Notes under the pieces: model-generated | Database searches by the model: none | Seen by the model: the letters and a program-made list of their open reading frames with translations, nothing else | Told to the model about the DNA's origin: nothing | Shown: piece after piece, positions 1,172 through 15,910 of the stretch | How positions within the stretch are numbered: position 1 is the first letter of the stretch | Layout: every line of letters starts with the position of its first letter | Assembly (NCBI GenBank): GCA_022648295.1 | Contig: JALCME010000001.1 | Location: forward strand, 372,001-436,000 | Direction of reading: 5' to 3' | Length of the DNA stretch: 64,000 nucleotides | DNA from: Bacteroides sp. | Lineage (GTDB): Bacteria; Bacteroidota; Bacteroidia; Bacteroidales; Bacteroidaceae | Made by a program: the position numbers and the translations under genes

Positions 1172-2284
1172 ATGAAAAAGATTTATTTATGTTGCCTGGC
1201 TGTCTTATTAAGCCTGACGAATGCATTTTCACAAGAAACCATAAACTACAAAGAGAAGCAATCCTACAAGAATTGGGTAAGAATAGCTCCCCGCTTTGAC
1301 GATGCATTCTTTAAAACTCCCGAAGCTGTACGCATTGCAGACAATGTACTCCTCTATCAACAAACAACAGGCGGCTGGCCCAAAAACATCTACATGCCCG
1401 CCGAAATAAAGTCGCAAGAAATGGACGATGTCATTGCAAGCAAGGACAATGTAAATGAGAGTACAATAGATAACGGAGCTACTACAACAGAAATCCGCTA
1501 TCTCTCACGTGTTTATCAGGCTACAAACATAGAGAAATATAGAAATGCCGCCTTAGACGGTATCCGCTACCTGATTAAATCCCAATATGCCAATGGAGGA
1601 TGGCCGCAGTTCTGGCCCCGCAATAAGGGATATTACACGCACATAACCTATAATGACAACGCCATGATAAACGTCATGAATCAGTTACGCGAAATCTATG
1701 AAAAGCAAGCACCTTATACTTATGCACCCGATGATATCTGCCAAAAGGCAAAAAAGGCTTTTGAAAAAGGAATTGAATGTATATTGGCAACCCAAGTAAA
1801 GCAAAACGGTAAATTAACCGTATGGTGTGCCCAACACGATGAACGCACTCTGGCACCCGCCAAAGCCCGCGCATACGAGCTTCCTTCTTTAAGTGGACAG
1901 GAATCTGACGATATAGTCTTGTTGCTGATGTCCCTTCCCCACCCTTCTAAAAAGATCATTGCATCCGTAGAAGCGGCAGTTGAATGGTTCAAAGCATCTG
2001 AAATCAAAGGGATTAAAAGAGAAACATTCATAAACGCCGAAGGCAAAAAAGACTTTCGCATGGTCCCGTGTACGGATTGCGGACCACTATGGGCACGTTT
2101 CTATACCCTTGAAGATAACCGCCCCTTCTTCTGCGATCGTGATGGCATCAAGAAGTACAATATTTCGGAAATCGGTTACGAACGGCGTAACGGGTACAGT
2201 TGGTATAACGATAACGGATTAAAAGTATTGAAGAAATACACCAAATGGGAAAAGGGGCTCAATAAAACGACTAAAACCCTCTAA
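1172..2284 (+). CDS. Secreted pectate lyase, PL10-type
   Basis: A 370-residue protein with an N-terminal signal peptide (cleavage expected after about residue 20, at NAFS/QE). PL10 enzymes cleave de-esterified polygalacturonan by beta-elimination using an (alpha/alpha) toroid fold. Seen here are repeated helical segments with GGWPKN near residue 68, NGGWPQFWP near 142 and TYNDNAM near 160, followed by an ESDD motif near 243 and a CTDCGPLWARFY segment near 300. These match what I know of the PelA/PL10 family. The length fits a single catalytic domain without a binding module. The gene starts 72 bases after the efflux gene and converges on the LacI regulator. It is the only polysaccharide lyase in the window and hints that pectin is a local theme. 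Family assignment is from motif recall, not an alignment. Confidence 0.8.
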   Translation: MKKIYLCCLAVLLSLTNAFSQETINYKEKQSYKNWVRIAPRFDDAFFKTPEAVRIADNVLLYQQTTGGWPKNIYMPAEIKSQEMDDVIASKDNVNESTIDNGATTTEIRYLSRVYQATNIEKYRNAALDGIRYLIKSQYANGGWPQFWPRNKGYYTHITYNDNAMINVMNQLREIYEKQAPYTYAPDDICQKAKKAFEKGIECILATQVKQNGKLTVWCAQHDERTLAPAKARAYELPSLSGQESDDIVLLLMSLPHPSKKIIASVEAAVEWFKASEIKGIKRETFINAEGKKDFRMVPCTDCGPLWARFYTLEDNRPFFCDRDGIKKYNISEIGYERRNGYSWYNDNGLKVLKKYTKWEKGLNKTTKTL

Positions 2285-2407: not shown

Positions 2408-3415
2408 TTAAGTGGAATTTCTCACGATCAAATGGGTAGGAATCACAACCTGCTCCGGCTCTTTTTCTTCTGATAAATGCTTTAATAATAACTCACAAGC
2501 AATAGTACCCATTTTATAAGTCTGATGTGTCATAGCTGTTAAAGTCGGCTCAACATAATTAGCATGAAGCTCATCAGTATAACCAATTAATGCAATATCC
2601 CGTGGTATACGAAGTCCATGTTCCTTTATTTCTTTCATAGCCGCAAAAGCTAAAGTGTCATTCATTGCCAATATAGCATCAGGAGGAGGAGACAATTCCA
2701 ATAAATGTCTGGTAGCTTCAATCCCTTCTTCATAAGCCATTTTTTCACAAACAATCAAATCTCTTTCTATTGGAAGATGAAAATTTCGCAACGCCTCCAA
2801 ATAACCATGTTTACGCTGTTTTACAATTTCCAAATGATTTGCTCCACCTATAAACCCCACCCTTCTGGCACCTCTCTGCAAAAGATATTCGGTAGCGACG
2901 CACCCTGATTCCACATTATCTGCAACTACAGAAGAATAAGTTTTACTTAAGCAGGTCCGGTCAAAGAATACTACAGGTATATTTTGCTGAACTAAAGCAG
3001 CAAAATGCGAGAAGTCTGTAGTTTCCTGAGAAACGCATGCGAGAATTCCCTCCACTCTAATATTTATCAAATCCTCCACACATTGCCTCTCCAATTCGTA
3101 TTGCTCATATGAAGAAGTAATAATCACGGAATAATGATTATGCCGTGCTGTATCACCAATACCACTAATAATAGATGAATAGAAATGAGTCACAATATCG
3201 GGCACAATAATTCCCAAGATACGAGGTCTATTTTTCAGTAAACTCATAGCAAAAGGATTGGGACGGTAATTACGCTCTTTAGCTAGGTCCTTTACCCGCT
3301 CACGTAATTCGGCCCCAATTTCCGGACTATCTTTCAAAGCCCTCGAAACAGTAGAAATAGAAATGCCCAATTCTGTAGCCAAATCTTTTAAAGAAACGTG
3401 AGTCTTGACTTTCAT
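2408..3415 (-). CDS. LacI-family transcriptional regulator
   Basis: A 335-residue one-component regulator. Residues 5-55 form the LacI helix-turn-helix (VSLKDLATELGIS, STVSRAL) followed by the hinge helix region, and residues 60-335 form a periplasmic-binding-protein-like sensor domain (LGIIVPDI near 68, GFIGG near 185, AILAMNDTLAF near 240). LacI proteins bind palindromic operators and usually release them on sugar binding. The ATG at 3415 is chosen; the in-frame TTG at 3421 is only six bases upstream and less likely. The gene diverges from the aldo/keto reductase operon. A palindrome in the spacer overlaps the gene's own -33 box, so autoregulation plus control of the catabolic operon is inferred. 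The inducer is probably the deoxyhexose or an oxidised intermediate. Confidence 0.93.
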   Translation of the reverse strand: MKVKTHVSLKDLATELGISISTVSRALKDSPEIGAELRERVKDLAKERNYRPNPFAMSLLKNRPRILGIIVPDIVTHFYSSIISGIGDTARHNHYSVIITSSYEQYELERQCVEDLINIRVEGILACVSQETTDFSHFAALVQQNIPVVFFDRTCLSKTYSSVVADNVESGCVATEYLLQRGARRVGFIGGANHLEIVKQRKHGYLEALRNFHLPIERDLIVCEKMAYEEGIEATRHLLELSPPPDAILAMNDTLAFAAMKEIKEHGLRIPRDIALIGYTDELHANYVEPTLTAMTHQTYKMGTIACELLLKHLSEEKEPEQVVIPTHLIVRNST

Positions 3416-3440
3416 AAACAATCAGATTAGGTAACAAGTA

Positions 3441-3472
3441 CAAAATTAAATTATAAGAATTACTTACGCAAA
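3441..3472 (-). promoter_or_regulatory. Predicted lacI-type gene promoter
   Basis: Read on the minus strand, TTTG at 3472-3469 (-33 box) is followed after 20 bases by TAATTTTG at 3448-3441 (-7 box). Both match the Bacteroides sigma-ABfr consensus with correct spacing. The -7 box lies 25 bases before the ATG at 3415. Confidence 0.6.
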
Positions 3473-3481
3473 GGTTTGCGT
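3466..3481. promoter_or_regulatory. Candidate LacI operator palindrome
   Basis: ACGCAAAGGTTTGCGT is a perfect 7-base inverted repeat around a two-base centre, of the size and style of LacI-family operators. It lies between the divergent regulator and catabolic operon and covers the regulator gene's -33 box. Binding would block the regulator's own promoter. It lies about 45 bases upstream of the + strand -7 box. Confidence 0.6.
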
Positions 3482-3524
3482 GTTTTTTTCACCTATTCAA
3501 CAGCTTACCAATATTATATATTTC

Positions 3525-3532
3525 TATTTTTG
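3525..3532 (+). promoter_or_regulatory. Candidate -7 box of the sugar-catabolism operon
   Basis: TATTTTTG fits TAnnTTTG and lies 39 bases before the ATG at 3572. The -33 position shows no clear TTTG, which would suit an activator-dependent or weak promoter. Confidence 0.45.
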
Positions 3533-3571
3533 ATTTTATAAATTGATTTAACCCTAAAAATAAGGAAAGTT

Positions 3572-4504
3572 ATGAATTACTATGAAATTGGGAAAACCGG
3601 AATGCGGGTCTCAAATTTAAGTTTCGGAGCGTCTTCACTAGGTGGAGTATTCCATGCCATCCGTGAAGCAGAAGGAATTAAAGCCGTATTCACGGCAATA
3701 GAACATGGCATGAATTTTATCGATGTATCTCCTTATTATGGATACTACAAGGCTGAGACCGTTTTAGGAAAAGCACTAAAAGAAATACCCCGTAATCAAT
3801 ATTACCTTTCAACAAAGGTCGGTCGTTATGGTCAGGATGGGGTAAACACATGGGATTATTCAGCGCAAAAAGTAACAGAAAGTGTTTATAAAAGCCTTGA
3901 AAGGCTGAATGTTGACTATATAGATCTAATCAATGTACACGACATTGAATTTGCGGACTTAAATCAAGTAGTCAATGAAACCTTACCTGCCTTAGTTGAA
4001 TTAAAAGAAAAAGGAATAGTAAGACATGTAGGTATAACGGATTTACAATTAGAAAACCTTCAGTGGGTAATAGAACATAGCAAAGCCGGGACAGTGGAAT
4101 CCGTATTAAACTTTTGCCATTATTGTTTGAATGATGATAAATTAGCGGATTATTTCAACTTCTTCGAGTCAAACAATGTAGGAATCATCAATGCTTCTCC
4201 TTTTGCAATGGGATTATTATCGTCACGAGGAATACCCGAATGGCATCCTGCTCCGAAGTCCTTGGTCGAAGCATGCCAGAAAGCTACGGAATATTGCAAA
4301 TCAAAGAATTATCCAATTGAAAAATTGGCTATTCAATATGCGGTCAGCTCCCCGCATATTGCAACAACATTATTCAGCTCTGCAAACCCAGAAAACGTTC
4401 TCAAAAATATTGAATATGCCTCATCCCCAATTGATTGGGATTTTGTAAAAGAGATACGTAATATTATAGGTGACCAGATAAGAGTGGGCTGGTCCAATAC
4501 TTAA
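3572..4504 (+). CDS. Aldo/keto reductase, L-fucose/L-galactose dehydrogenase-like
   Basis: A 310-residue cytoplasmic enzyme of the aldo/keto reductase superfamily. The catalytic tetrad is visible: Asp51 and Tyr56 in FIDVSPYYG, Lys82 in STKVG, and His123 in NVHD. The subgroup looks like the plant L-galactose dehydrogenase / bacterial L-fucose (D-threo-aldose) dehydrogenase branch, which oxidises the C1 hydroxyl of a 6-deoxy or L-hexose to the lactone with NAD(P)+. It is the first gene of a tight operon: 14 bases to the lactonase-like gene, then permease and alcohol dehydrogenase. Together with the nearby fucosidase and mutarotase, the natural substrate is inferred to be L-fucose, though L-galactose, D-arabinose or L-rhamnose cannot be excluded from sequence alone. 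Confidence 0.87.
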   Translation: MNYYEIGKTGMRVSNLSFGASSLGGVFHAIREAEGIKAVFTAIEHGMNFIDVSPYYGYYKAETVLGKALKEIPRNQYYLSTKVGRYGQDGVNTWDYSAQKVTESVYKSLERLNVDYIDLINVHDIEFADLNQVVNETLPALVELKEKGIVRHVGITDLQLENLQWVIEHSKAGTVESVLNFCHYCLNDDKLADYFNFFESNNVGIINASPFAMGLLSSRGIPEWHPAPKSLVEACQKATEYCKSKNYPIEKLAIQYAVSSPHIATTLFSSANPENVLKNIEYASSPIDWDFVKEIRNIIGDQIRVGWSNT

Positions 4505-4518
4505 ACTGATATAAAGCC

Positions 4519-5442
4519 ATGGATTACACAATAATAGATGCACATTCACACTTATGGCTCAGGCAAGATACCATAGTTAACGACCTTCCCATACGTACCA
4601 CCACTAATGGTCGTTCGGAATTTATGGGTGAAATTCGACAAATGCTTCCACCCTTTATGATTGATGGACGCAACAGTGCAGAAGTATTCTTATCAAATAT
4701 GGATTATGCACAAGTATCTGCCGCTGTTGTCACACAAGAATATATTGATGGAAATCAAAATGACTACTTATTGGAAGTCAGTCAACGCTATCCCAAACGG
4801 TTTTTCGTATGCGGCATGTGTGAGTTTCGCCATTCAGGATATTATGAAGAAGCGATACAACTGATAGAAAAAGGATTTAGAGCCATTAAAATACCGGCCC
4901 ATAGACTAGAGACATCCCAAGGAAGAACTTTATTAAATTCCACTGAAATGATGAGAATGTTTCGCTATATGGAGTCAAAAGATATTTTACTATCCATTGA
5001 CTTGGCAGAAGGCAACTTACAAATAAACGAAATGAAAGAAGTAATTACCGAATGTCCCAAGTTGCGCATAGCAATCGGGCATTTTGGCATGGTTACAAAA
5101 AGCCATTGGATAGAACAGATCAAATTGGCAGAGCATTCTAACGTAAGGATTGAATCCGGAGGAATCACATGGCTGTTCAACGAAGAAGGCTATCCTTTTA
5201 AAGGTGCCTGTCAGGCTATTAGAAAAGCTGCCGATTTGGTCGGCATAAATAAATTAATGTGGGGGTCAGATTATCCACGCACCATCACAGCCATTACCTA
5301 TAAAATGTCTTATGACTTTATACTAAAATCAATGCTATTTACTTCCGAGGAGAAAGCCATGTTTTTGGGTAGAAATGCTATAGCATTTTATAGATTTAAC
5401 AATCCAATACAATTGCCTTATATCAAAAACATGTCAGAATAA
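4519..5442 (+). CDS. Amidohydrolase-family sugar lactonase (fuconolactonase-like)
   Basis: A 307-residue amidohydrolase_2 (COG3618-type) TIM-barrel protein. Metal and catalytic ligands are visible: His9 and His11 in DAHSHLW, His188 in AIGHFG and Asp251 in WGSDYPR. Members of this group hydrolyse sugar lactones such as L-fucono-1,4-lactone and L-rhamnono-lactone, or decarboxylate or hydrolyse aromatic acids. The position directly after a sugar dehydrogenase and before a FucP-like permease favours lactonase, which would turn the dehydrogenase product into the aldonate. No signal peptide, so cytoplasmic. The gap to the upstream gene is 14 bases, consistent with co-transcription. An alternative is a plain metal-dependent hydrolase of unknown substrate. 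Confidence 0.82.
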   Translation: MDYTIIDAHSHLWLRQDTIVNDLPIRTTTNGRSEFMGEIRQMLPPFMIDGRNSAEVFLSNMDYAQVSAAVVTQEYIDGNQNDYLLEVSQRYPKRFFVCGMCEFRHSGYYEEAIQLIEKGFRAIKIPAHRLETSQGRTLLNSTEMMRMFRYMESKDILLSIDLAEGNLQINEMKEVITECPKLRIAIGHFGMVTKSHWIEQIKLAEHSNVRIESGGITWLFNEEGYPFKGACQAIRKAADLVGINKLMWGSDYPRTITAITYKMSYDFILKSMLFTSEEKAMFLGRNAIAFYRFNNPIQLPYIKNMSE

Positions 5443-5462
5443 CCTTCAACACCTTGTTTAAC

Positions 5463-6722
5463 ATGAAAAAGAATATTTATTCCATTCCATTGGCACTCAT
5501 CTTTTGCTTATTCTTTTTATGGGCTATCAGTAGTAACTTGCTGCCCACAATGATCAGGCAATTAATGAAGACTTGTGAGCTAAACCCTTTTGAAGCATCT
5601 TTTACTGAATCTTTTTACTGGTTGGCTTACTTCATCTTTCCTATTCCTATAGCTATGTATATGAAGAAATACAGCTATAAGTCAGGTATAATCTTCGGAT
5701 TACTACTGGCTGCATGCGGCGGATTACTTTTTATCCCGGCAGCAATAATTAAAACATATTGGGCTTATTTATGCATCTTCTTTGTCATCGCGACAGGCAT
5801 GTGTTTTCTAGAAACAGCAGCCAACCCTTATGTCACAGCTTTGGGCGATCCTCAAACAGCCTCACGCCGGTTAAATCTCGCCCAATCATTTAACGGACTT
5901 GGAGCCTTTATCGCTGCAATGTTCTTAAGCAAATTAGTTTTAAGTGGCAACCATTATGTGCGTAACACTCTACCGACCGGCTATCCCGGAGGATGGAGTG
6001 CATACATCGAAACAGAGACCAATGCAATGAAGCTTCCGTATCTTATATTAGCAGGCCTATTAATAATCATCGCTATCATTTTTATTTTCTCTCATCTACC
6101 ACGAATAAAAGAAGAGATTCAAGAACTGGGAGAAAAGGAAAGCGATGGTAAACTTATTAATTTCGATGTTCTAAAACGGTCCCATTTACGTTGGGGAGTA
6201 ATCGCCCAATTTTTCTATAACGGAGGACAGACAGCCATTAACAGCCTATTTTTGGTCTATTGCTGCATTTACATAGGACTGCCGGAAAGTACAGCCACTA
6301 CTTTCTTCGGGTTCTATATGTTGGCCTTTTTGTTGGGACGTTGGATTGGCACTTTGCTAATGGGAAAGTTCCGCCCACAAAATATGCTGTTAACTTATGC
6401 AATAGTAAATATGCTGTTATGTGTAGTTATCATTTGTTTTGGTGGTATGGTTGGACTCTATTCCATGTTGGGAATTTCTTTTTTCATGTCCATCATGTAT
6501 CCCACACAATTTTCTCTCGCCTTAAAAGATTTGGGTAACGATACAAAAAGCGGATCGGCATTCTTAGTAATGGCTATCGTGGGCAACGCTTGCCTACCTC
6601 AGCTTACAGCTTATTTTATGAATTCTAATGAAAACTATTACTATGTAGCTTATTTTATTCCAATGATTTGCTTCGCATTTTGTGCTTACTACGGTTGGAA
6701 AGGCTATAAGATCATTAATTGA
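5463..6722 (+). CDS. MFS sugar permease, FucP-like
   Basis: A 419-residue inner-membrane protein with about 12 hydrophobic segments, of the L-fucose:H+ symporter (FucP) branch of the major facilitator superfamily. Typical features are the N-terminal FFLWAISSNLLP segment, the ETAANPYVTALG motif near residue 117 and NLAQSFNGLG near 140. The ATG at 5463 is chosen; the in-frame TTG three codons upstream is a weaker start. It sits between the lactonase-like gene and a zinc alcohol dehydrogenase, so it probably imports the free monosaccharide released in the periplasm by the fucosidase of the neighbouring operon. Related permeases carry glucose/galactose (GluP) or N-acetylglucosamine, so specificity is inferred from context. 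Confidence 0.9.
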   Translation: MKKNIYSIPLALIFCLFFLWAISSNLLPTMIRQLMKTCELNPFEASFTESFYWLAYFIFPIPIAMYMKKYSYKSGIIFGLLLAACGGLLFIPAAIIKTYWAYLCIFFVIATGMCFLETAANPYVTALGDPQTASRRLNLAQSFNGLGAFIAAMFLSKLVLSGNHYVRNTLPTGYPGGWSAYIETETNAMKLPYLILAGLLIIIAIIFIFSHLPRIKEEIQELGEKESDGKLINFDVLKRSHLRWGVIAQFFYNGGQTAINSLFLVYCCIYIGLPESTATTFFGFYMLAFLLGRWIGTLLMGKFRPQNMLLTYAIVNMLLCVVIICFGGMVGLYSMLGISFFMSIMYPTQFSLALKDLGNDTKSGSAFLVMAIVGNACLPQLTAYFMNSNENYYYVAYFIPMICFAFCAYYGWKGYKIIN

Positions 6723-6771
6723 ATTTTATCATTCTTGATTATTTCATAATATTCTAAATTAAAAAGAAAAA

Positions 6772-7797
6772 ATGAAAGCAATACAAATTACAGCTCCCCA
6801 TCAAATGGGAGTCATTGATATTGAGAAGCCGGCTATTAAACCGGATGAGATACTACTAAAGTTAAGTCACGTGGGATTCTGTGGATCGGATTTAAACACT
6901 TACCTCGGCCGAAATCCGATGGTGAAGCTTCCTGTTATACCCGGACATGAAGTTGGTGCCGTAATAGCAGAAACAGGAAACAAAGTCCCTGATTTATTTA
7001 AAGTCGGCATGAGCGTAACGGTTAACCCTTATACCAATTGCGGAAAATGTGCGTCCTGCCGTAATGGGCGGGTCAACGCTTGCGAACACAATGAAACGTT
7101 AGGAGTACAACGCAATGGTATGATGTGTGAATACGCCGCTATTTCCTGGAACAAAGTGATTCCTGCTCCGGCTCTTTCGCCTAAACATTGTGCCTTAATA
7201 GAACCAATGAGTGTTGGCTTTCATGCCATATCCCGTGCAGCAGTCACCGATATAGATTTCGTCATGGTAATAGGATGTGGTATGATAGGAATAGGTGCTA
7301 TTGTACGGGCCGCCCTCCGGGGAGCTACAGTCATAGCCGTAGATTTAGACGATGAGAAACTCCAACTGGCAAAAAAAATCGGTGCATCCCACACTATTAA
7401 TTCAATGACTGAGAATGTCCACGAACGTCTACTTGAAATTACAGAAGGAATGGGACCAGATGTCGTTGTAGAAGCTGTAGGAAGTTCACCTACTTACATC
7501 ATGGCAATTAGTGAAGCGGGTTATACTGGAAGAGTCGTATGCATAGGTTACGCCAAAAGTGAAATACTACTTCAAACCAAGTTCTTTGTACAAAAAGAAC
7601 TGAATATTTATGGTTCCCGTAATGCTATGCCACAAGATTTCCGTGCTGTAATTCATTATCTTGAAAAAGGAAATAACTTGGTTGACAAATTAATATCCGA
7701 TGTTGTAAGCCCAGAACAAGCGCAAGTAAGCATGCAAAAATGGACGAAACAACCAGGAAAGGTTTTTCGGATTCTAGTAGACTTTGCCAGCAGATAA
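6772..7797 (+). CDS. Zinc-dependent medium-chain alcohol dehydrogenase
   Basis: A 341-residue medium-chain dehydrogenase/reductase. The catalytic zinc site is seen as Cys38 in GFCGSD and His-Glu in PGHEVG. A structural-zinc loop has four cysteines in NCGKCASCRNGRVNACE, and a Rossmann motif GCGMIGIGA is near residue 167. Relatives include sorbitol, threonine and L-galactonate/L-fuconate-type dehydrogenases, which oxidise a secondary alcohol with NAD(P)+. As the last gene of the operon it could oxidise an aldonate or a keto-deoxy-aldonate, or it may be a second sugar dehydrogenase. The spacer to the permease is 49 bases. It ends just before a bidirectional terminator. The exact reaction cannot be fixed from sequence. 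Confidence 0.88.
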   Translation: MKAIQITAPHQMGVIDIEKPAIKPDEILLKLSHVGFCGSDLNTYLGRNPMVKLPVIPGHEVGAVIAETGNKVPDLFKVGMSVTVNPYTNCGKCASCRNGRVNACEHNETLGVQRNGMMCEYAAISWNKVIPAPALSPKHCALIEPMSVGFHAISRAAVTDIDFVMVIGCGMIGIGAIVRAALRGATVIAVDLDDEKLQLAKKIGASHTINSMTENVHERLLEITEGMGPDVVVEAVGSSPTYIMAISEAGYTGRVVCIGYAKSEILLQTKFFVQKELNIYGSRNAMPQDFRAVIHYLEKGNNLVDKLISDVVSPEQAQVSMQKWTKQPGKVFRILVDFASR

Positions 7798-7813
7798 TCA
7801 CCCGTTTTAAAAT

Positions 7814-7858
7814 AAATTTCCCCTCCTAGATTGCATCATGCTTTTAGGAAGGGAAATT
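7814..7858. terminator. Bidirectional terminator between convergent operons
   Basis: Arms 7814-7830 and 7842-7858 form a nearly perfect stem (AAATTTCCC with GGGAAATT at the base) with an 11-base loop. It is preceded by an A-rich and followed by a T-rich run. It lies between the alcohol dehydrogenase (+) and mutarotase (-) genes. Confidence 0.75.
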
Positions 7859-7895
7859 GTTTATACTTTAATACATTTATTCATTATAGGGAATT

Positions 7896-8273
7896 TTATT
7901 CATACAAATAAGACATCCGATCCATTAATTGCCATTTCTGGTCCGATGACGCATCAGAGTCACATTGTTGGAAAGCTGATACATATTTTTCCCATTCTTT
8001 TTGGCGGGGCAAAGAAGACAAGCGTTTCATCGCAGTATCCCAATCGAAATCAAGTGGAGTCTCAACAATCATAAACAAGTGATTACCATATACATATACT
8101 TCCATCTCTAAAATACCCACTGCACGAATACCTGCTCTAATTTCAGGCCATGAATTCACTTTATTATGACATTCTATGTACTTCGCTATCAACTCTGGAT
8201 TATTTTTCAAATCCATAGTCTGGCAATATCTTTTCACCAAACAACCATAGTCTCTTACTTTATACCCGTTCAT
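7896..8273 (-). CDS. L-rhamnose/L-fucose-type mutarotase
   Basis: A 125-residue protein of the RhaM (DUF718, COG3254) family, dimeric ferredoxin-like enzymes that interconvert alpha and beta anomers of 6-deoxyhexoses. Family features seen are His36 and Trp42 in the CHNKVNSWPEI segment, a YGNHLFMIVE strand near residue 65, and a C-terminal WQLMDRMSYL segment. The ATG at 8273 is taken; a GTG one codon upstream is possible. It is the last gene of the fucosidase-SusC-SusD operon, 29 bases after SusD. It would feed the right anomer to the dehydrogenase encoded on the opposite strand. Similar mutarotases accompany oxidative fucose pathways in other bacteria (established knowledge, for example the Campylobacter fucose locus), which supports L-fucose as substrate. 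Confidence 0.88.
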   Translation of the reverse strand: MNGYKVRDYGCLVKRYCQTMDLKNNPELIAKYIECHNKVNSWPEIRAGIRAVGILEMEVYVYGNHLFMIVETPLDFDWDTAMKRLSSLPRQKEWEKYVSAFQQCDSDASSDQKWQLMDRMSYLYE

Positions 8274-8302
8274 CACTTTTTATTTAAATATTATATAGCT
8301 AT

Positions 8303-9988
8303 CTAATACCCTTCATTTTGTTTCAAATTTTTATTTACATTCAAGTCACTTTGAGGTATAGGAAAATAGCGATTATGAGTAGTCCACATACGCTTTTCAA
8401 ATTGATAATACATGTTTTCATTAACAGGAGAAGCCGAAGATCCTGAACCACGATAATTCCGTTCATTGGAATTATCAGAGAGCTTAACCCCTGTAAAAGT
8501 ACAATTTAACTCTTTTTCGGCAATTCCCCAACGAAGTACATCAAAGTAACGAAGCCCCTCAAAAGCAAGTTCAACCCTCCTCTCTTGTCGAACCGCTTCA
8601 CGCAATAATTCAGGTGAATTAACCTCCTCTTTTTTTATCTTTGGTAGATTAACGCGAGAACGAATATCATTAATTGTCAAATCAAGAATTCCTTGATCCA
8701 CAGAGTTTGGTTCAGACTCATTCAAAGCTTCCAGATAACTTAATAAAACCTCAGCATAACGCATAAGCGGAGTATAAGTTGGAGTTGATCCCAGATTATT
8801 TGTAATTGAAGGATCACATCCTTTTTTAGGGCAATACCCATTAAATAATGGGTATTTATTGTAATAATCGGAAGTACCCGCCCCTTTAAAACAATCGTAA
8901 AGAATGCCATTATAAACAGTACCGGAATAACTGCCTACCGGAGGTAAAAAAATAGATGCATATAAACGCAAATCTCTGTTTGCATATGGATCAGCATCAT
9001 TATAGACTTGGGAATCTTTTATGCTTTTACCATCAGAACAGAAATAAGACTGAATCAATTCGTTGTAAGGAGCAAACTGATGCCACCCCCCAATGGCCTC
9101 CGGATATAAATACTGATAACGAGAGGTTGTATATTTATCCTTAATTCCCATAATGCAAAAAATCATTTCAGAGCTATATTCGCCTCCAATCTGAAACAAT
9201 TTTTCATAGCTATCATTACCAAACTGACGATCCAGCTCATAGACACCTGAGTCTATTACATCACGTAACACCAGAACAGCATCAGACCATTTATCTTGGG
9301 CTAAATAGACACGTCCCAACAACACCTCAGCTGCTCCTTTAGTAAAACGTCCATATTCATCAGAAGAAAGCTTCAAAGGCAGTAATGTTATGGCATCTTT
9401 CAAGTCTTTTTCAATTTGAACATATACATCAGATTGCAAAGTTTGGAAAATAGAATTGGCTTCTTCTACACTTAAAGTTTTCAATGGCATAGGTATGTTT
9501 CCAAAGTAAAACGCTAAATTAAATAAAAAATAGGCACGTAAACATTTTACTTCTGCCACCCATACTTCTTTTTTAGATTCATCCATCGGACATGAATTAA
9601 TTTTATCTAAAAAAGTATTATACTTTGCTATTTGGATATAAGCATTGCTCCAGAACCACTGAATATTGCCATTAGTAGCAAGGGTATTTGAACTAGCCAT
9701 TAACGTCGTATAGCCTTCCTTCTCAGTTCCATTTCCGCCTGCAAAATCAAGATAGAGCAACCCTTGAGGAGTAGCAAAATCATCATGTGACCATCCTGTT
9801 TGAAACCGATAACAACCTGTTAAAGCCAAAAGAGCATCACTTTCCCCTGTCCAGAAACTGTTATCAGAGATAGAAGAAGTAGGTTCCTTGTTTAATAAAT
9901 CCGAACAGCTTGTTAACACACTATTAAGAAGCCAAGTCAATACAAATAAATAGAACATTGACTTATTTATAAGATATATTTTTTTCAT
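8303..9988 (-). CDS. SusD/RagB-type glycan-binding lipoprotein
   Basis: A 561-residue surface lipoprotein with a lipobox ending at Cys27 (LTSCSD) after a hydrophobic signal. The SusD fold is recognisable from the N-terminal segment with SISDNSFWT, the TPR-like region with VKCLRAYFLFNLAFYFGNIP near residue 150, and the C-terminal RQERRVELAFEGLRYFDVLRW motif near 475. SusD proteins lie on top of their SusC partner and capture oligosaccharides before import. It follows SusC by 18 bases in the same operon. Ligand is inferred to be fucose-containing because the first gene of the operon is a GH29 fucosidase. Confidence 0.96.
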   Translation of the reverse strand: MKKIYLINKSMFYLFVLTWLLNSVLTSCSDLLNKEPTSSISDNSFWTGESDALLALTGCYRFQTGWSHDDFATPQGLLYLDFAGGNGTEKEGYTTLMASSNTLATNGNIQWFWSNAYIQIAKYNTFLDKINSCPMDESKKEVWVAEVKCLRAYFLFNLAFYFGNIPMPLKTLSVEEANSIFQTLQSDVYVQIEKDLKDAITLLPLKLSSDEYGRFTKGAAEVLLGRVYLAQDKWSDAVLVLRDVIDSGVYELDRQFGNDSYEKLFQIGGEYSSEMIFCIMGIKDKYTTSRYQYLYPEAIGGWHQFAPYNELIQSYFCSDGKSIKDSQVYNDADPYANRDLRLYASIFLPPVGSYSGTVYNGILYDCFKGAGTSDYYNKYPLFNGYCPKKGCDPSITNNLGSTPTYTPLMRYAEVLLSYLEALNESEPNSVDQGILDLTINDIRSRVNLPKIKKEEVNSPELLREAVRQERRVELAFEGLRYFDVLRWGIAEKELNCTFTGVKLSDNSNERNYRGSGSSASPVNENMYYQFEKRMWTTHNRYFPIPQSDLNVNKNLKQNEGY

Positions 9989-10006
9989 ATTATTAGCAGT
10001 TAATAA

Positions 10007-13000
10007 TTAAAACTTTAGATTGATGCCAAACGAATAAATACTATTTATAGGATAATATGATGGAGAATCCCCCGTACCTATTTCATTCTCAGGATCCCAT
10101 CCTTTATAAAAGCCATTAAAAGAGTACAAATTTTGTCCACTTAAGAATACACGCATATTAACAAGTCCAAATCTGCGAATCCATTGTAAGGGTAGCGTGT
10201 ACCCTATTTGGACGTTTTTTATACGTAAAAAACTAGCATCACGCACCCAATAATCAGACGTCTGCAAATTCGCATTATTCATATTTAGAGTTTCCAAACG
10301 AGGATATTTAGCCCATTTGTTTGGATTTTCTTCAGTCCAACAATTTTCGGCTTGCCATTTCTGTATTTGTCCTCCATTATAAAAAGCATACGCCATATAT
10401 GATCCGATCAATCGATCATATCCTCCTAATCCTTGCAAAAGCGCTGAGAAATCAAAGTTTTTGTAAGAGGCTGAAAGATTCAATCCGTAATAGAACTTAG
10501 GAGTAGCACTTCCCAATACTCTACGGTCATAATTAGCATCTACTTTTCCATCTGGCACTCCATCTGGCCCACTAATATCTTTATACTTAACATAACCGGG
10601 TTTTATGTTATCTTTTCCTACGAGCTGTTCAGGTGCAGCATCAATTTCAGCTTGGTCCACAAACAGTCCATCAGTCTCATATCCATAAATAATACCAAGA
10701 GGTTCTCCCACAATACGATTATTATTTATTTCTTCTTTAGCCCCACTACCTAATTTTTCTACAGCATTTTTTACATAAGTAAAATTAGGAGATATATCGA
10801 AAGTAAATGCATGCCCTAATCTGCCATGATAAGAAAATTCTATTTCAAACCCTTTATTTGAAACTGCACCAACATTAGACTGACCGACTCCACGCCCCAT
10901 AATAGAAGCTACTTCAACAGACGCTAATATATCTGAAGTATATTTATAGAAATAATCAAAAGTTCCAGTAAGTGATGAATTAAACACACTGAAATCCAAT
11001 CCGAGATCTGTAATAGATGTTTTTTCCCATGTAACTTTAGGATTATTATAAGTAGCAATGTATGCGCCAGATTGCAAGGTAGCCGGATTTCCCAAAGGAT
11101 AATCTTCTCCTAACGAATAAGTTTGTTGATAGGGATATGTACCGATATTCTGATTGCCCAAGACCCCATAAGAAGCACGAATTTTCAAATTATCAAAAGC
11201 TGTTGATATCGCTGCTTTTTTCCAAAACTTTTCTTCAGAGATTCTCCACCCAGCAGAAACTGAAGGAAAAATGCCCCAACGATGTTTCGGCGCAAATCGA
11301 GAAGAACCATCATATCGCAAATTCATTTCTACCAAATATCGGTCCTTAAATGAATAATTGATACGACCAAAATAAGAAAGTAGAGCATATTCCGATAAAT
11401 CACTACTATTCGCGGCAGTAGATTGATCTCCAGAGCTTAATTCATATAAATAATTATTAGGAAAAGTGTTACGATAACCATACAAACTCCTATCATTTGA
11501 TTGTTCGATAGAAGTTCCTAATAAGACTTTAAAATAATGATCTTTCACACGTTTTTCGTAATTAGATAAGGCTTCTACTGTTGTATAAGTATTATTAGCA
11601 CTCCACATATTCAAACTTGCAGGTCCCACGGTTTTATTTTCATCAAAATAAGTATTCGCTTGATAAGATTTATCAAATTTCGTCCAATAGGTAACTCCAA
11701 CTTTACCAATAAAAGCTAAACCTTCAAAAGGTGTATTCCATTTCAATTGGGAAGATGCACTTATGTTCCTATTAATATTGTGTACAAACGATTGACTCGC
11801 CAACCAAGCTTCTGGACTATAATTATCCTGATATCCAAAACTTCCATCTGTTTTCTTGCCAGCATAAATGGGAGCTTCTCTTACAGCATATCCAATCATT
11901 CCCTCAATGCTCTGAGGTTCACCATTAGGTGCATCGTATTTATTATTATACGCATTCATATTAAAATCCAAGACTAAACCTTTACATAGCTCACTCTTCA
12001 AAGTAAATAAAGCGGTCATACGCTCATTTGCTGTCTTTGCAGTCATCCCTTCCTGGTTCCGATACCCTACAGATAAATTATAGCTAATTTTAGCGTTACC
12101 CCCTCGAATACTAACATTATGCTGATGCTGAAAGCCTGAACCACTTTCTAATAGCCATTTCAAATGATTTACATTCGGATAACTATCAAGATCAGACCCT
12201 TCCTTAAACTTTTGTATATCTTCTGAAGTATATGCATCCTGTTTTCCCATATTAGACATAGCCATATTATAATATTCTGCATATTGCCATGAAGGTAGGA
12301 AATCAGGTAACTCGGTTGGGCATTGCCATCCACAAGAACCACTATATGTAATAGTCGTTTTACCCTGCACACCCTTCTTTGTTTCAATCAAAATTACCCC
12401 ATTTGCAGCTCTATTGCCATAAATAGACGCGGAAGCAGCATCTTTAAGAAACGAAAGACTTTGAATATCACCTGGATCTATGTCATCAATATTACCAGAT
12501 AATCCATCTATCAATATTAGTGGATCAGTTCCTGCACTTGAGAAAGTTCCTGTACCACGGATCTTTACAGTTGCACTGGCTCCGGGTTTACCCGAATTTT
12601 GTAGCACACTAAGCCCCGGAGCCAGTCCAGCAATAGCTTGCGCCGTACTCATAACCGGCTTATCCTTCAATTCATTAGCATTTACAGATGATACGGATCC
12701 TGTTAAATTGACTTTCTTTTGAACACCATAACCAACAACGACAACTTCTTCCAAGCTCTTAGTATCTTCTTTCAGCACAATTGAAATGTTTTCGTGCCCA
12801 GTAACGTCTATTTCCTGTGAAACATATCCCACATAACTAATTGAAAGAATATTCCCTTTTGCTACGGATAAAGAAAAATGTCCATCAACATCACTTACTG
12901 TTCCGCTGGAGGTCCCTTTAATTAGAATACTCACTCCAATTAAAGGTTGTCCAGATGAATCTGCAATTTTACCATTCACAAACAGCTTTACTTGTGCCCA

Positions 13001-13072
13001 AACAATGCTGCTTAAAGAGAAAACAAGTAAAAGGACAATCACCCTTTTGCTTTCAAAAATCTGATTTTTCAT
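10007..13072 (-). CDS. SusC/RagA-type TonB-dependent outer-membrane transporter
   Basis: A 1021-residue transporter, a usual length for SusC. In order: signal peptide (about 1-26, SIVWAQ), a carboxypeptidase-regulatory-like beta domain (about 30-110), the TonB box region around VVVVGYG, plug domain (about 115-235, with KIRGTGTF and LILIDG), then a 22-strand barrel ending in the aromatic-terminated strand FGINLKF. It imports oligosaccharides across the outer membrane using TonB-ExbBD energy. Its partner is the SusD gene 18 bases downstream. The N-terminal extension is the short SusC form and no anti-sigma STN domain is seen, so control by an ECF sigma/anti-sigma pair is not expected. Confidence 0.97.
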   Translation of the reverse strand: MKNQIFESKRVIVLLLVFSLSSIVWAQVKLFVNGKIADSSGQPLIGVSILIKGTSSGTVSDVDGHFSLSVAKGNILSISYVGYVSQEIDVTGHENISIVLKEDTKSLEEVVVVGYGVQKKVNLTGSVSSVNANELKDKPVMSTAQAIAGLAPGLSVLQNSGKPGASATVKIRGTGTFSSAGTDPLILIDGLSGNIDDIDPGDIQSLSFLKDAASASIYGNRAANGVILIETKKGVQGKTTITYSGSCGWQCPTELPDFLPSWQYAEYYNMAMSNMGKQDAYTSEDIQKFKEGSDLDSYPNVNHLKWLLESGSGFQHQHNVSIRGGNAKISYNLSVGYRNQEGMTAKTANERMTALFTLKSELCKGLVLDFNMNAYNNKYDAPNGEPQSIEGMIGYAVREAPIYAGKKTDGSFGYQDNYSPEAWLASQSFVHNINRNISASSQLKWNTPFEGLAFIGKVGVTYWTKFDKSYQANTYFDENKTVGPASLNMWSANNTYTTVEALSNYEKRVKDHYFKVLLGTSIEQSNDRSLYGYRNTFPNNYLYELSSGDQSTAANSSDLSEYALLSYFGRINYSFKDRYLVEMNLRYDGSSRFAPKHRWGIFPSVSAGWRISEEKFWKKAAISTAFDNLKIRASYGVLGNQNIGTYPYQQTYSLGEDYPLGNPATLQSGAYIATYNNPKVTWEKTSITDLGLDFSVFNSSLTGTFDYFYKYTSDILASVEVASIMGRGVGQSNVGAVSNKGFEIEFSYHGRLGHAFTFDISPNFTYVKNAVEKLGSGAKEEINNNRIVGEPLGIIYGYETDGLFVDQAEIDAAPEQLVGKDNIKPGYVKYKDISGPDGVPDGKVDANYDRRVLGSATPKFYYGLNLSASYKNFDFSALLQGLGGYDRLIGSYMAYAFYNGGQIQKWQAENCWTEENPNKWAKYPRLETLNMNNANLQTSDYWVRDASFLRIKNVQIGYTLPLQWIRRFGLVNMRVFLSGQNLYSFNGFYKGWDPENEIGTGDSPSYYPINSIYSFGINLKF

Positions 13073-13121
13073 ACTAAAAAGATTTCAAATTGGTTATTAT
13101 AAGGTAATAATAGAGAAGAGG

Positions 13122-13143
13122 CCTTTCTAATCTTTTAGAAAGG
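13122..13143 (-). other. Hairpin between fucosidase and SusC genes
   Basis: CCTTTCTAA and TTAGAAAGG form a perfect 9-base stem with a 4-base loop in the 99-base spacer. It lies downstream of the fucosidase stop and upstream of the SusC start, with no T-tract on the minus strand. It may be a processing or stability element or partial attenuator that sets different levels of enzyme and transporter. Confidence 0.4.
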
Positions 13144-13171
13144 ATAAATAATTTTTCATTCTTATTTCGAT

Positions 13172-14815
13172 TTATTTTTTTACTCTAATAACAGGTGCAA
13201 TATTGTTCACTTTTTTAGGCAATTTAATTAAAAGCCCATTTTTCGTTCGAGAGAAAGGCACTTTACCATAGCCCAATAGATCTACTTTTGTTATTCTCTG
13301 TTTAAAAAAAGAACTATCTAACGCTAATGATTTAACAAGAACTTTCCCATCTTTAGGCCATGCCATAGCTGTTACATACAAAAACTTTGAAGTTTGAGTA
13401 AAACGTATTTCATTGGACGAAACTTTTTCATAAGCACCCTCGTTGAAACCTTGAGCATGAATAGGAATTTTAGAATTAGCAACTGGTCCTTCGCCAAAAA
13501 TCATCCATGGACGTGTATTTATTATAGACTCTTTATTAACATTCATCCAACGCCCAAACTCCTCCAATATAACTTCTTCTTTTTCATCAAAAGTACCATC
13601 AGCCCGGAGAGGAACACTTAGTAGTAAATTCCCATTTTTACTTACAATATCAACCAAAAGTCTGACAACCGTAGCAGCTGACTTATAACCATTATTCTTA
13701 TAAATAGAAGCATTATAGTGCCACCCACCTATGCAAGAGCATGACTGCCAAGGATCGCTCATGATGCTATCTGGAGCTCCTCGTTCTACATCCCATACCA
13801 ACGCTTTGCGTTGATTATTATCCAATATTTTTCCAAACATCACTCCATTCAGTTTGCCATGATGGGTAGCTATATTGTGGTTATAAAAATGTGCTGCAAT
13901 TTTTAAGCCAGCATCGCTGAAAGGATAAAAAGGAACTACCGTGACATCAAAATAAATTAAATCGGGATTATAACGATTGATAGCATCTAAAGTACGGTTA
14001 TAAAACTTAGTGCAATATTCTTGTGAAGGTAAACAAACCCCATTACTCCACCCCCATTGTCTATGAATCGCGCCATCATCCCAACTATCTTCACTTAACG
14101 GATGATTCTGTGCATATAAATCCTGAGGATCATATCCTTCCCACCATTTGCCTTTTCCATCAACTTTTGTCATTCTTCCATCATAAGGTATTCCTACTTT
14201 CGGTCCCTTCTTATCATACCGTTGAGCCGTTTCATAAAAAAGCCACGCATGATCAGCATGGAAACTGATCCCGAAAGGCAAATGATATTTACGTGCTGCT
14301 TTCGCCCATCCCGCTAAAATATCTCTTTTAGGACCCATATTTACGGAATTCCATGGTTGATATTTACTATCCCAGAGGTCCATATTATCGTGATGATTCC
14401 CCAATGCAACAAAATATTGGGCACCTATCTTCTTGTAAAAAGCCACCAATTTATCGGGATCCCATTTCTCCGCTTTAAATAAAGGTATGATATCTTTAAA
14501 TCCTACTTCAGAAGGATGACCATAGTGTGCTACATGATATTTATATTCCTTAGACCCTTCTATGTACATGGACCGTGCCATCCAGTCACCGGTACCTTCC
14601 ACACATTGTGGCCCCCAATGTGCCCAAATACCAAATTTAGCATTTCTAAACCATTCAGGAGCTTTATAGTTTTCTAGAGACTCCCAAGTCGGTTTAAAAT
14701 CACCTTTCATCATTTTTTCATTTTCTTCGGAGATAGGAACAGAGTATACTTGAGCCTCTACCTTCGCAAAAAAGAACAATATTAAAGTCCAAATAAATAA
14801 GCGATTTACGTTCAT
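13172..14815 (-). CDS. Secreted alpha-L-fucosidase, GH29
   Basis: A 547-residue enzyme with a signal peptide (ATG at 14815, cleavage near VEAQ). GH29 enzymes release alpha-linked L-fucose with retention of configuration. Family marks seen are FGIWAHWGP near residue 65, NHHDNMDLWDS near 135, GPKRDILAGW, and the likely nucleophile Asp290 in PDLIYFDVT. The C-terminal about 90 residues form a beta-sandwich. Two in-frame upstream ATGs (14881, 14839) would bury the signal peptide behind a non-signal leader and are rejected. It is the first gene of an operon with SusC, SusD and mutarotase, and diverges from the AraC regulator. It probably acts in the periplasm or at the surface, freeing fucose for the FucP-like permease. 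Confidence 0.92.
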   Translation of the reverse strand: MNVNRLFIWTLILFFFAKVEAQVYSVPISEENEKMMKGDFKPTWESLENYKAPEWFRNAKFGIWAHWGPQCVEGTGDWMARSMYIEGSKEYKYHVAHYGHPSEVGFKDIIPLFKAEKWDPDKLVAFYKKIGAQYFVALGNHHDNMDLWDSKYQPWNSVNMGPKRDILAGWAKAARKYHLPFGISFHADHAWLFYETAQRYDKKGPKVGIPYDGRMTKVDGKGKWWEGYDPQDLYAQNHPLSEDSWDDGAIHRQWGWSNGVCLPSQEYCTKFYNRTLDAINRYNPDLIYFDVTVVPFYPFSDAGLKIAAHFYNHNIATHHGKLNGVMFGKILDNNQRKALVWDVERGAPDSIMSDPWQSCSCIGGWHYNASIYKNNGYKSAATVVRLLVDIVSKNGNLLLSVPLRADGTFDEKEEVILEEFGRWMNVNKESIINTRPWMIFGEGPVANSKIPIHAQGFNEGAYEKVSSNEIRFTQTSKFLYVTAMAWPKDGKVLVKSLALDSSFFKQRITKVDLLGYGKVPFSRTKNGLLIKLPKKVNNIAPVIRVKK

Positions 14816-15008
14816 AGCATACGATTTATAGATTGTCATTTTAAACAATGCTAAAGTAGAGAGATTGAAAAACAATAGCAATGTCTAATAACGAGGTTAA
14901 ATAAGACTTTATCGATATATCTTCCAAAAAGTCCATTCTAAGGCGTTTAAGTCACTAAAAAGAAAAACAATATCGACTCCAAAATACAATAAGCTCATTT
15001 TTATATAA

Positions 15009-15016
15009 TACATTTG
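15009..15016 (+). promoter_or_regulatory. Candidate -7 box of the AraC-family gene
   Basis: TACATTTG fits TAnnTTTG and ends 33 bases before the ATG at 15050. It covers the alternative TTG start at 15014, which argues that translation begins at 15050. The -33 position is not clear. Confidence 0.45.
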
Positions 15017-15049
15017 TCTAACTTTAACTCCTTAAATAACTCTGAAACT

Positions 15050-15910
15050 ATGATACCATCAGTTGACCAACTACATTTGTTAGTACTAAATGTGGGACTT
15101 GCCATACATAATGCCGATTGGAATTGGAAAGAAATAAATAGCCCATTTGCCAGACTCTATTATATAAAAGAAGGGTCAGCACAAATTATACTACCAACAG
15201 GAATACAAAATTTGAGTCCTAATCATCTGTATTTTATTCCCCCTTTTACCACTCACAGCTATTCATGTAATTCTCACTTTGAACACTATTATCTACATAT
15301 TTATGAAGATCACCAGTCAGAAACGAGTATATTAGAAGAATTTGATTTCCCAATAGAAGCTCCAGCCGGCAGGCTCGAATTAGAATTAATGAAAAGAATG
15401 TGTGCAATTAACCCTACGATGTATTTAAAGCAATCGGATCCAACTACATATGATAATAATCCGACCCTAATTCAGAATATTGCGATTAACAAACAACGTA
15501 TGTATTGTGATAAAGTAGAATCAAGAGGAATTATATATCAGCTACTATCCCGTTTTTTAAAAGATGCACACCCTAAAGTTGCAACAAATGATAATCGAAT
15601 TCAAAAAGTACTATCATATATAAGAAAGAACATATACATCCCTATTAATATAGATGATCTTTCAGCACTTATATGTCTTTCAAAAGATCACTTTATCCGA
15701 CTATTTAAAAGGGAAGTAGGATGTACGCCTGTGCAATATATTAACCAAAAGAAAATAGAGAAAGCCCAATTGATGATCGTTACAAAAAATATGCCTATAA
15801 AAAACATAGCTTATTCATTAGGCTATGAAGACCTGTCATATTTTAATAAGCTGTATAAAAAACACACGGGATTAACTCCGATGGAATATAAAGCCTCAAT
15901 TAAGAAATAA
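15050..15910 (+). CDS. AraC-family transcriptional regulator
   Basis: A 286-residue regulator with an N-terminal cupin-type sugar-binding domain (about 1-110, with LYYIKEG, LSPNHLYFIPPFTTHSY) and a C-terminal double helix-turn-helix (about 190-286, with LICLSKDHFIRLFKREVGCTP and NIAYSLGYEDLSYFNKLYKKHTG). Such proteins activate catabolic genes on binding a sugar. It diverges from the fucosidase-SusC-SusD-mutarotase operon with a 234-base spacer and is the likely activator of that operon. The locus thus has two regulators, LacI for the intracellular pathway and AraC for acquisition. That division is inferred from gene order only. Confidence 0.92.
   Translation: MIPSVDQLHLLVLNVGLAIHNADWNWKEINSPFARLYYIKEGSAQIILPTGIQNLSPNHLYFIPPFTTHSYSCNSHFEHYYLHIYEDHQSETSILEEFDFPIEAPAGRLELELMKRMCAINPTMYLKQSDPTTYDNNPTLIQNIAINKQRMYCDKVESRGIIYQLLSRFLKDAHPKVATNDNRIQKVLSYIRKNIYIPINIDDLSALICLSKDHFIRLFKREVGCTPVQYINQKKIEKAQLMIVTKNMPIKNIAYSLGYEDLSYFNKLYKKHTGLTPMEYKASIKK

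What the first reader, a model, noticed from the sequence alone, without database searches (positions are those of the whole stretch)
3415..15910. Fucose polysaccharide locus with an oxidative, isomerase-free pathway
GH29, SusC/D, mutarotase, FucP-like permease, aldo/keto reductase, lactonase-like amidohydrolase and Zn alcohol dehydrogenase are joined in one locus with two regulators. Known Bacteroides fucose use runs through isomerase, kinase and aldolase (established knowledge). This set instead predicts fucose to fuconolactone to fuconate by dehydrogenation. It would be an alternative route built into a capture locus.
Basis: partly seen in the sequence, partly recalled or inferred. Interest (0 to 1): 0.72.

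Follow-up and report, generated by a model that had tools for sequence, protein, structure and literature searches.

The report
Gut bacterial L-galactose harvesting gene locus
This gene cluster, first read as an unusual fucose pathway, encodes a sugar-oxidising enzyme whose closest solved relatives are L-galactose dehydrogenases, beside a glycan-capture unit predicted to clip L-galactose off plant glycans, so it is likely a variant of a known L-galactose route rather than a new way to use fucose.

Summary
The oxidative logic holds, but the sugar is most likely L-galactose, not L-fucose. The AKR's best solved relative is an L-galactose dehydrogenase (530 bits), the lactonase scores 21 bits against a 400-bit fuconolactonase cut-off, and the gene order is the one I recall for the Phocaeicola vulgatus L-galactose pathway (Hobbs 2014, cited in PMC12632266). 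In 18 of 80 related loci UxaB- and UxaA-like genes lie near the cassette. Across 151 family genomes the GH29 group tracks the AKR (51 of 72 with it, 8 of 79 without) and not fucose isomerase (21 of 53 against 38 of 98). GH29's nearest solved relative is the alpha-L-galactosidase BpGH29, only 36-40% identical. The genome as held shows no fucose isomerase, but AKR and isomerase are distributed independently. New parts: a predicted alpha-L-galactosidase group of GH29 with its own SusC/D pair, and candidate operators for both regulators. Specificity is untested, and some 55-58% relatives of the GH29 sit beside fucose isomerase.

The parts
2408..3421 (-). LacI-family regulator, predicted repressor of the AKR operon
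   Evidence: PF00356 + PF13377; homologue of at least 50% identity in 26 of 80 AKR loci
3464..3481 (.). Predicted LacI operator TTACGCAAAGGTTTGCGT, palindromic
   Evidence: Conserved in the alignment of 26 LacI-AKR spacers, window included; within 400 bp of the AKR start in 26 of 80 loci, 0.36 expected, reversed pattern 0; 25 of those 26 were used to find it, L004 was not; the only copy without mismatch in the own genome
3572..4504 (+). Aldo/keto reductase, predicted L-galactose dehydrogenase
   Evidence: PDB 7lh6 L-galactose dehydrogenase, 530 bits over residues 1-309; the next four sequences are also named L-galactose dehydrogenase, 271-305 bits; other AKRs at most 103 bits
4519..5442 (+). 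Amidohydrolase, predicted L-galactono-lactonase
   Evidence: PF04909; NCBIfam fuconolactonase 21 bits against cut-off 400; one weak PDB match
5454..6722 (+). FucP-like MFS permease, predicted L-galactose:H+ symporter
   Evidence: TIGR00885 321 bits, over cut-off; at least 60% identical relatives in 33 of 80 AKR loci, while the seven fetched regions that carry fucose isomerase have a permease only 30-31% identical
6772..7797 (+). Zn-dependent alcohol dehydrogenase, predicted L-galactonate 5-dehydrogenase
   Evidence: PF08240 + PF00107; 31% identity over 292 residues to E. coli LgoD, L-galactonate oxidoreductase
7815..7858 (.). Inverted repeat between the two convergent units, likely a two-way terminator
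   Evidence: Arms 7815-7828 and 7845-7858; 13 of 14 bases complementary, read by eye
7896..8276 (-). RhaM-family sugar mutarotase
   Evidence: PF05336, 94 bits; relatives of at least 50% identity in 19 of 80 AKR loci
8303..9988 (-). SusD-like glycan-binding lipoprotein
   Evidence: PF07980, PF14322
10007..13072 (-). SusC-like TonB-dependent transporter
   Evidence: TIGR04056, 973 bits; 71% identical copy beside a 72% identical GH29 in L116
13172..14881 (-). GH29, predicted secreted exo-alpha-L-galactosidase (likely start 14815)
   Evidence: PF01120, PF16757; best PDB match BpGH29 exo-alpha-L-galactosidase, 266 bits, next fucosidase 166; nucleophile D312 aligns with D264 of BpGH29; co-occurs with the AKR in 151 genomes
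14901..14918 (-). Predicted AraC-regulator box ATATCGATAAAGTCTTAT upstream of GH29
   Evidence: Motif within 400 bp of GH29 or AKR starts 14 times in 9 of 80 loci, 0.17 expected, reversed pattern 0; 7 of the 9 loci were used to find it, L023 and L041 (no mismatch, upstream of the AKR) were not; only copy without mismatch in the own genome
15014..15910 (+). AraC-family regulator, predicted activator of the GH29-SusC-SusD-mutarotase unit
   Evidence: PF12833; relatives of at least 45% identity in 25 of 80 AKR loci, divergent from GH29 in several

Best explanation
The locus encodes a SusC/SusD capture unit with a GH29 glycosidase and, beside it, an enzyme set whose first member matches solved L-galactose dehydrogenases, and together they would most likely harvest L-galactose from plant glycans and oxidise it to D-tagaturonate. 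Predicted steps: SusC/D would import an L-galactose-capped oligosaccharide; the GH29, which has a signal-like N-terminus (read by eye), would release alpha-L-galactose in the periplasm (GH29 enzymes are retaining; established knowledge); the FucP-like permease would take it into the cell; the RhaM-type mutarotase would supply the anomer that the dehydrogenase uses; the AKR would oxidise it to the lactone, the amidohydrolase would open it to L-galactonate, and the Zn-ADH would oxidise C5 to D-tagaturonate. D-tagaturonate would then pass through a reductase and an altronate dehydratase predicted elsewhere in the genome to 2-keto-3-deoxygluconate. LacI would repress the catabolic operon at the palindrome 3464-3481, and AraC would activate the capture operon at 14901-14918. 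Shown: gene content, homologies, conserved sites, linkage. Inferred: every catalytic specificity, effector and the source glycan.
For: AKR: the five best PDB sequences are all named L-galactose dehydrogenase. LguA, in one phylogenetic cluster with BVU_0219 and the Arabidopsis enzyme, is reported to show no activity with L-fucose (PMC12632266, passages). Hobbs 2014 (recalled; cited in PMC12632266) assigned BVU_0219 and BVU_0222 as L-galactose and L-galactonate dehydrogenases. UxaB-like genes lie in 19 and UxaA-like in 18 of 80 AKR loci (two of the 19 only 40-44% identical to the query), and L063 runs GH29-mutarotase-GH31-AKR-AMH-MFS-ADH-UxaB-UxaA; the own genome has both elsewhere, 73% and 65% identical. 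GH29 group against AKR over 151 genomes: 51 of 72 against 8 of 79, odds ratio 21.6; against fucose isomerase 1.04. In the window's genus GH29 and AKR agree in 10 of 10 genomes. GH29's nearest solved relatives by sequence and by fold rank are the BpGH29 entries.
Confidence: 0.78

Rival explanations
1. One reading: the locus is an isomerase-free oxidative L-fucose pathway (fucose to fuconolactone to fuconate).
For: GH29 and a FucP-family permease over one of two fucP cut-offs; no fucose isomerase in the genome as held.
Against: AKR matches L-galactose dehydrogenases; lactonase 21 bits against 400 for fuconolactonase; the one enolase scanned in the window is not a fuconate dehydratase by its best models; UxaB/UxaA-like genes near the cassette in relatives, a route that a 6-deoxy sugar acid could not finish, lacking the O6 that KDG kinase phosphorylates (established chemistry); AKR and isomerase distributed independently.
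Confidence: 0.06
2. Dual use: AKR and lactonase act on both L-galactose and L-fucose, which share C2-C4 stereochemistry, and fuconate is a dead end or is drained by another enzyme.
For: The two sugars differ only at O6; in 4 of 151 genomes fucose isomerase lies within 15 kb of the AKR, so both sugars may reach the same cells; four MR_MLE enolase genes exist in the genome, three of them not examined.
Against: Related LguA has no reported L-fucose activity (PMC12632266); the seven fetched regions with isomerase carry a different, 30-31% identical permease.
Confidence: 0.12
3. The catabolic cassette is for L-galactose, but this GH29 is an alpha-L-fucosidase that uncovers other sugars.
For: Most characterised GH29s are fucosidases (established knowledge); relatives of 55-58% identity sit within 15 kb of fucose isomerase in 4 of 10 cases; no specificity residue found.
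Against: Strong GH29-AKR association and none with isomerase; BpGH29 is the closest solved enzyme; no isomerase found in this genome with which to use released fucose.
Confidence: 0.15

Closest known systems
L-galactose pathway of Phocaeicola (Bacteroides) vulgatus, BVU_0219-0222 (Hobbs et al. 2014, recalled; cited in PMC12632266)
   Same: AKR dehydrogenase, amidohydrolase lactonase, permease and Zn-ADH in the same order (order recalled); D-tagaturonate as intermediate (PMC12632266 passage)
   Different: Here beside a SusC/SusD-GH29-mutarotase capture unit with its own AraC regulator; proteins not compared directly because the paper and records were not held; whether P. vulgatus has such a unit nearby was not checked
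BpGH29 exo-alpha-L-galactosidase of the B. plebeius porphyran PUL (Bacple_01702; PMC12316285, passages)
   Same: GH29, nearest solved relative, same nucleophile position
   Different: 36-40% identity; none of the ten locus proteins scanned is a porphyranase, agarase or sulfatase; P. plebeius DSM 17135 carries a 75% identical relative of our GH29 in an AKR cassette (L014)
PUL-XylL of B. ovatus with GH95 alpha-L-galactosidase BACOVA_03438, GH31 alpha-xylosidase and GH97 (PMC4491172, passages)
   Same: Removal of L-galactose from a captured glycan; GH31, GH97 and GH43 genes also neighbour the AKR cassette in some relatives
   Different: GH95 (inverting) there, GH29 here; no xylanase among the locus proteins
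Luteolibacter lguABCDEF L-glucose/L-galactose pathway (PMC12632266, passages)
   Same: Related dehydrogenase, D-tagaturonate as intermediate
   Different: Other gene set and phylum, includes L-glucose use, no SusC/D mentioned in the passages seen

Membership tests
L-galactose -> D-tagaturonate pathway (BVU_0219-0222 type) | AKR of the L-galactose dehydrogenase family | tested here: met
   PDB 7lh6 530 bits; five L-galactose dehydrogenases rank first, next AKR 103 bits
L-galactose -> D-tagaturonate pathway (BVU_0219-0222 type) | Amidohydrolase and Zn-ADH linked to the AKR | tested here: met
   In the window and in 75 of 80 AKR loci
L-galactose -> D-tagaturonate pathway (BVU_0219-0222 type) | Zn-ADH is an L-galactonate 5-dehydrogenase | tested here: inconclusive
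   31% to E. coli LgoD, no NCBIfam model over cut-off
L-galactose -> D-tagaturonate pathway (BVU_0219-0222 type) | Downstream tagaturonate reductase and altronate dehydratase in the genome | tested here: met
   PF08125 and PF04295 each once in the own genome, 73% and 65% identical to the cassette-linked ones; family level only
L-galactose -> D-tagaturonate pathway (BVU_0219-0222 type) | Sequence identity to BVU_0219-0222 | not tested
   Proteins not held
L-galactose -> D-tagaturonate pathway (BVU_0219-0222 type) | Catalytic activity on L-galactose | not testable with these tools
   Needs assay
Oxidative L-fucose pathway | L-fuconolactonase | tested here: not met
   NF052480 21 bits, cut-off 400
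Oxidative L-fucose pathway | L-fuconate dehydratase | tested here: inconclusive
   Of four MR_MLE enolases in the genome only the one in the window was examined; best model L-Ala-D/L-Glu epimerase, below cut-off
Isomerase L-fucose pathway | L-fucose isomerase | tested here: not met
   No match in own genome, 92.4% complete (control rings in E. coli, no positive control)
GH29 exo-alpha-L-galactosidase | GH29 fold and catalytic nucleophile | tested here: met
   PF01120; D312 aligned with D264 of BpGH29
GH29 exo-alpha-L-galactosidase | Pocket that accepts the O6 hydroxyl | tested here: inconclusive
   No discriminating residue found between AKR-linked and isomerase-linked groups
Polysaccharide utilisation locus | Adjacent SusC/SusD pair with a glycosidase | tested here: met
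   8303-14881

The most novel reading that the evidence does not exclude
A widespread, unassigned GH29 clade of gut Bacteroidales is a dedicated alpha-L-galactosidase family, and it forms with RhaM mutarotase, SusC/D, an AraC sensor and the L-galactose dehydrogenase cassette a complete capture-to-tagaturonate system for L-galactose caps of complex plant glycans (corn-type xylan or xyloglucan). Related GH29, AraC and mutarotase genes also occur with a fucose isomerase and a different permease, so one capture module would have been rewired between two sugars that differ by a single hydroxyl.
Probability: 0.5. Interest if true: 0.5.

Novelty: new variant of a known kind. Interest (0 to 1): 0.36.

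Why it matters
GH29 proteins are commonly named alpha-L-fucosidase; both clusters of this group that bore a product name are. Here is a group, present in 59 of 151 family genomes, whose genomic company points to L-galactose instead, with a pathway, a permease and two regulators at hand to test it. If right, it corrects annotation in many gut genomes, adds an alpha-L-galactosidase beside GH95 and BpGH29, and warns that oxidative fucose use should not be inferred from GH29 plus oxidative genes. In the titles and abstract openings listed (searches listed 20 of 35 and 20 of 54 papers) I saw none that ties this GH29 group to the L-galactose cassette; that library lacks most subscription journals.

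Tried and rejected
Rejected: fucose as main sugar (see rivals). Rejected: the cassette as a replacement for fucose isomerase; isomerase is in 27 of 72 genomes with the AKR and 26 of 79 without, and the two lie within 15 kb of each other in 4 of 151.

Led nowhere or weak: (a) Control with another GH29 of the same genome (L001): only 5 of 151 genomes matched, too few to serve as a control. (b) Specificity residues: one column passed the filter, and it is not clean; position 313 differs between sub-groups (V or D) but does not follow the linked pathway. (c) AlphaFold model of GH29: mean pLDDT 69; the fold comparison ranks BpGH29 first but fucosidases almost level. (d) Source glycan: at E <= 1e-20, GH97 relatives in 11 (some only 23-35% identical), GH31 in 8 and GH43 in 3 of the 80 loci; the GH31 of L063 is closest to the alpha-xylosidase BoGH31A, a xyloglucan enzyme as I recall, so xylan and xyloglucan cannot be told apart. 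(e) The enolase in the window as fuconate dehydratase: not supported. (f) The regulators' sites occur once each without mismatch in the own genome, so no wider regulon was found; weaker matches are about as frequent as for the reversed pattern.

Rows and limits: the 80 loci are the best of 531 confirmed, capped. In one search the own genome is among the 151 but not among the 80 GH29 rows used for distances; contig breaks hide linkage. GH29 within 15 kb of the AKR: 15 of 36 (59% identity or more), 0 of 10 (55-58%), 13 of 34 (below 55%); within 15 kb of isomerase: 2, 4 and 3. No isomerase was found in the 80 loci. Many window ORFs beyond 31 kb were not scanned. Fisher values ignore phylogeny.
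Full report
Observation. The order is LacI (2408-3421, -), AKR (3572-4504, +), amidohydrolase (4519-5442, +), FucP-like MFS (5454-6722, +), Zn-ADH (6772-7797, +), RhaM-type mutarotase (7896-8276, -), SusD (8303-9988, -), SusC (10007-13072, -), GH29 (13172-14881, -), AraC (15014-15910, +). Gene spacing makes two convergent units, each behind its own divergent regulator, with an inverted repeat between them at 7815-7858.

Which sugar: the enzymes. The AKR's five best solved relatives are named L-galactose dehydrogenase; 7lh6 scores 530 bits, four others 271-305, and the next AKR 103. The amidohydrolase scores 21 bits on the NCBIfam fuconolactonase model, whose cut-off is 400. The permease passes one fucP model (321 against 280.4 bits) and not a second (292.5 against 427); FucP of E. 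coli also carries L-galactose (recalled). The Zn-ADH is 31% identical over 292 residues to E. coli LgoD, L-galactonate oxidoreductase. The AKR-amidohydrolase-permease-ADH order is that of BVU_0219-0222, described by Hobbs et al. 2014 as L-galactose -> L-galactono-1,5-lactone -> L-galactonate -> D-tagaturonate. I recall that paper; it is not held, but PMC12632266 (passages) cites it for BVU_0219 as L-galactose and BVU_0222 as L-galactonate dehydrogenase. The same paper reports no L-fucose activity for LguA, which it places in one cluster with BVU_0219.

Which sugar: the company the genes keep. Of the 80 loci kept for the AKR (best of 531 confirmed), 75 also hold the amidohydrolase and the ADH, 33 the same permease at 60% or more, 26 the LacI, 25 the AraC, 19 the mutarotase and 14 the GH29. 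Nineteen carry an UxaB-like and 18 an UxaA-like gene (two of the 19 only 40-44% identical). L063 runs GH29-mutarotase-GH31-AKR-amidohydrolase-permease-ADH-UxaB-UxaA. UxaB and UxaA act on D-tagaturonate and D-altronate (established knowledge), which L-galactonate can feed; a 6-deoxy acid from fucose could not be phosphorylated at C6 afterwards (inference). The names rest on Pfam families (mannitol dehydrogenase; galactarate/altronate dehydratase), which are broader. The own genome has one gene of each kind elsewhere, 73% and 65% identical to those in L063.

Genome-wide test. In 151 genomes of the family, 72 have the AKR (E <= 1e-80), 59 a close GH29 (E <= 1e-140) and 53 fucose isomerase. GH29 occurs in 51 of 72 genomes with the AKR and 8 of 79 without (odds ratio 21.6), but in 21 of 53 with isomerase and 38 of 98 without (1.04); isomerase is in 27 of 72 with the AKR and 26 of 79 without (1.22). 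In the window's genus the GH29 and the AKR agree in 10 of 10 genomes (5 with both, 5 with neither), while isomerase is in 3 of 5 and 3 of 5. These counts ignore shared ancestry. The window's genome shows no isomerase (92.4% complete), so 'isomerase-free' holds, but absence is common in the family (98 of 151) and unrelated to the cassette.

Evidence on the other side. Relatives of the GH29 at 55-58% identity lie within 15 kb of fucose isomerase in 4 of 10 cases and within 15 kb of the AKR in none. Three fetched regions (L108-L110) look like fucose loci built from the same kinds of part: isomerase, mutarotase, permease and GH29, with AraC in two of them, and no AKR; a fourth (L117) has GH29 and that permease type with neither isomerase nor AKR found. 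In four regions (L105, L111-L113) isomerase and AKR lie together, and in L112 no ADH was found. In the seven isomerase regions the permease is only 30-31% identical to ours. Among the 80 AKR loci, where no isomerase was found, 33 of the 39 with a detectable permease carry ours at 60% or more, one at 59.5% and five one at 32-33%. So permease type mostly, not strictly, follows the sugar route, and GH29 type is less strict. No alignment column separates the groups cleanly. BpGH29 falls in a network cluster that the authors of PMC11189522 call not isofunctional (passage), so likeness to it does not prove specificity.

Regulation. The LacI-AKR spacer holds TTACGCAAAGGTTTGCGT at 3464-3481. The palindrome is within 400 bp of the AKR start in 26 of 80 loci (0.36 expected; reversed pattern 0) and occurs once without mismatch in the own genome. 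A second motif, WTRTCGATAWNGTCNTAT, lies at 14901-14918 upstream of GH29. It occurs 14 times in 9 of 80 loci within 400 bp of GH29 or AKR starts (0.17 expected; reversed pattern 0), in L017 and L063 as direct repeats 21 bp apart. Both motifs were read from alignments of most of these loci (25 of the 26, and 7 of the 9), which favours them; L004 for the first, and L023 and L041, where the second lies upstream of the AKR without mismatch, were not used. One regulator type would thus control both units in some species.

Source glycan. Relatives place GH97 (11 of 80 loci), GH31 (8) and GH43 (3) near the cassette. PUL-XylL of B. ovatus joins a GH95 alpha-L-galactosidase, a GH31 alpha-xylosidase and a GH97 for complex corn xylan (PMC4491172, passages). 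But the GH31 in L063 is closest to BoGH31A, a xyloglucan enzyme as I recall. I lean to complex xylan or xyloglucan caps, at low confidence.

Verdict. Ordinary in its core chemistry, since the pathway is known; a new variant in its capture part. The decisive tests are enzyme assays on L-galactose against L-fucose.

Noticed in passing
window 1172-2284 (+): Pectate lyase (TIGR02474, 403 bits) just upstream of the LacI gene; a possible plant-pectin neighbour of the locus.
   Followed up: no
window 22359-24584 (-) and 19600-22359 (-): DUF5703 protein (PF18961, 368 bits) next to a large ORF that I take for a GH2-like protein (by eye, not scanned).
   Followed up: no
window 29952-31070 (+): Enolase-superfamily protein closest to L-Ala-D/L-Glu epimerase models, below cut-off; one of four MR_MLE genes in the genome.
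   Followed up: partly
L104:7748-11959, L105:2031-6158, L106:11659-15885, L113:13688-17803, L118:9051-12629: Long GH29 relatives (1,192-1,408 aa) in AKR loci; in the two scanned (L104, L118) the GH29 is followed by three and one DUF5013 stretches.
   Followed up: partly
L017:14204-15823, L106:6982-8637: A 539-551 aa protein with only a C-terminal CARDB-like stretch, in 6 of 80 AKR loci, sometimes beside GH97; possibly an unrecognised glycosidase.
   Followed up: partly
L112:8257-13895: AKR-amidohydrolase-fucose isomerase-permease-mutarotase with no Zn-ADH found: a mixed cassette that could be truly fucose-oxidising or missing a step.
   Followed up: no
L108-L110: Isomerase loci with related mutarotase and GH29 (and AraC in two), but a different permease and no AKR: apparent module exchange between fucose and L-galactose use.
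   Followed up: partly
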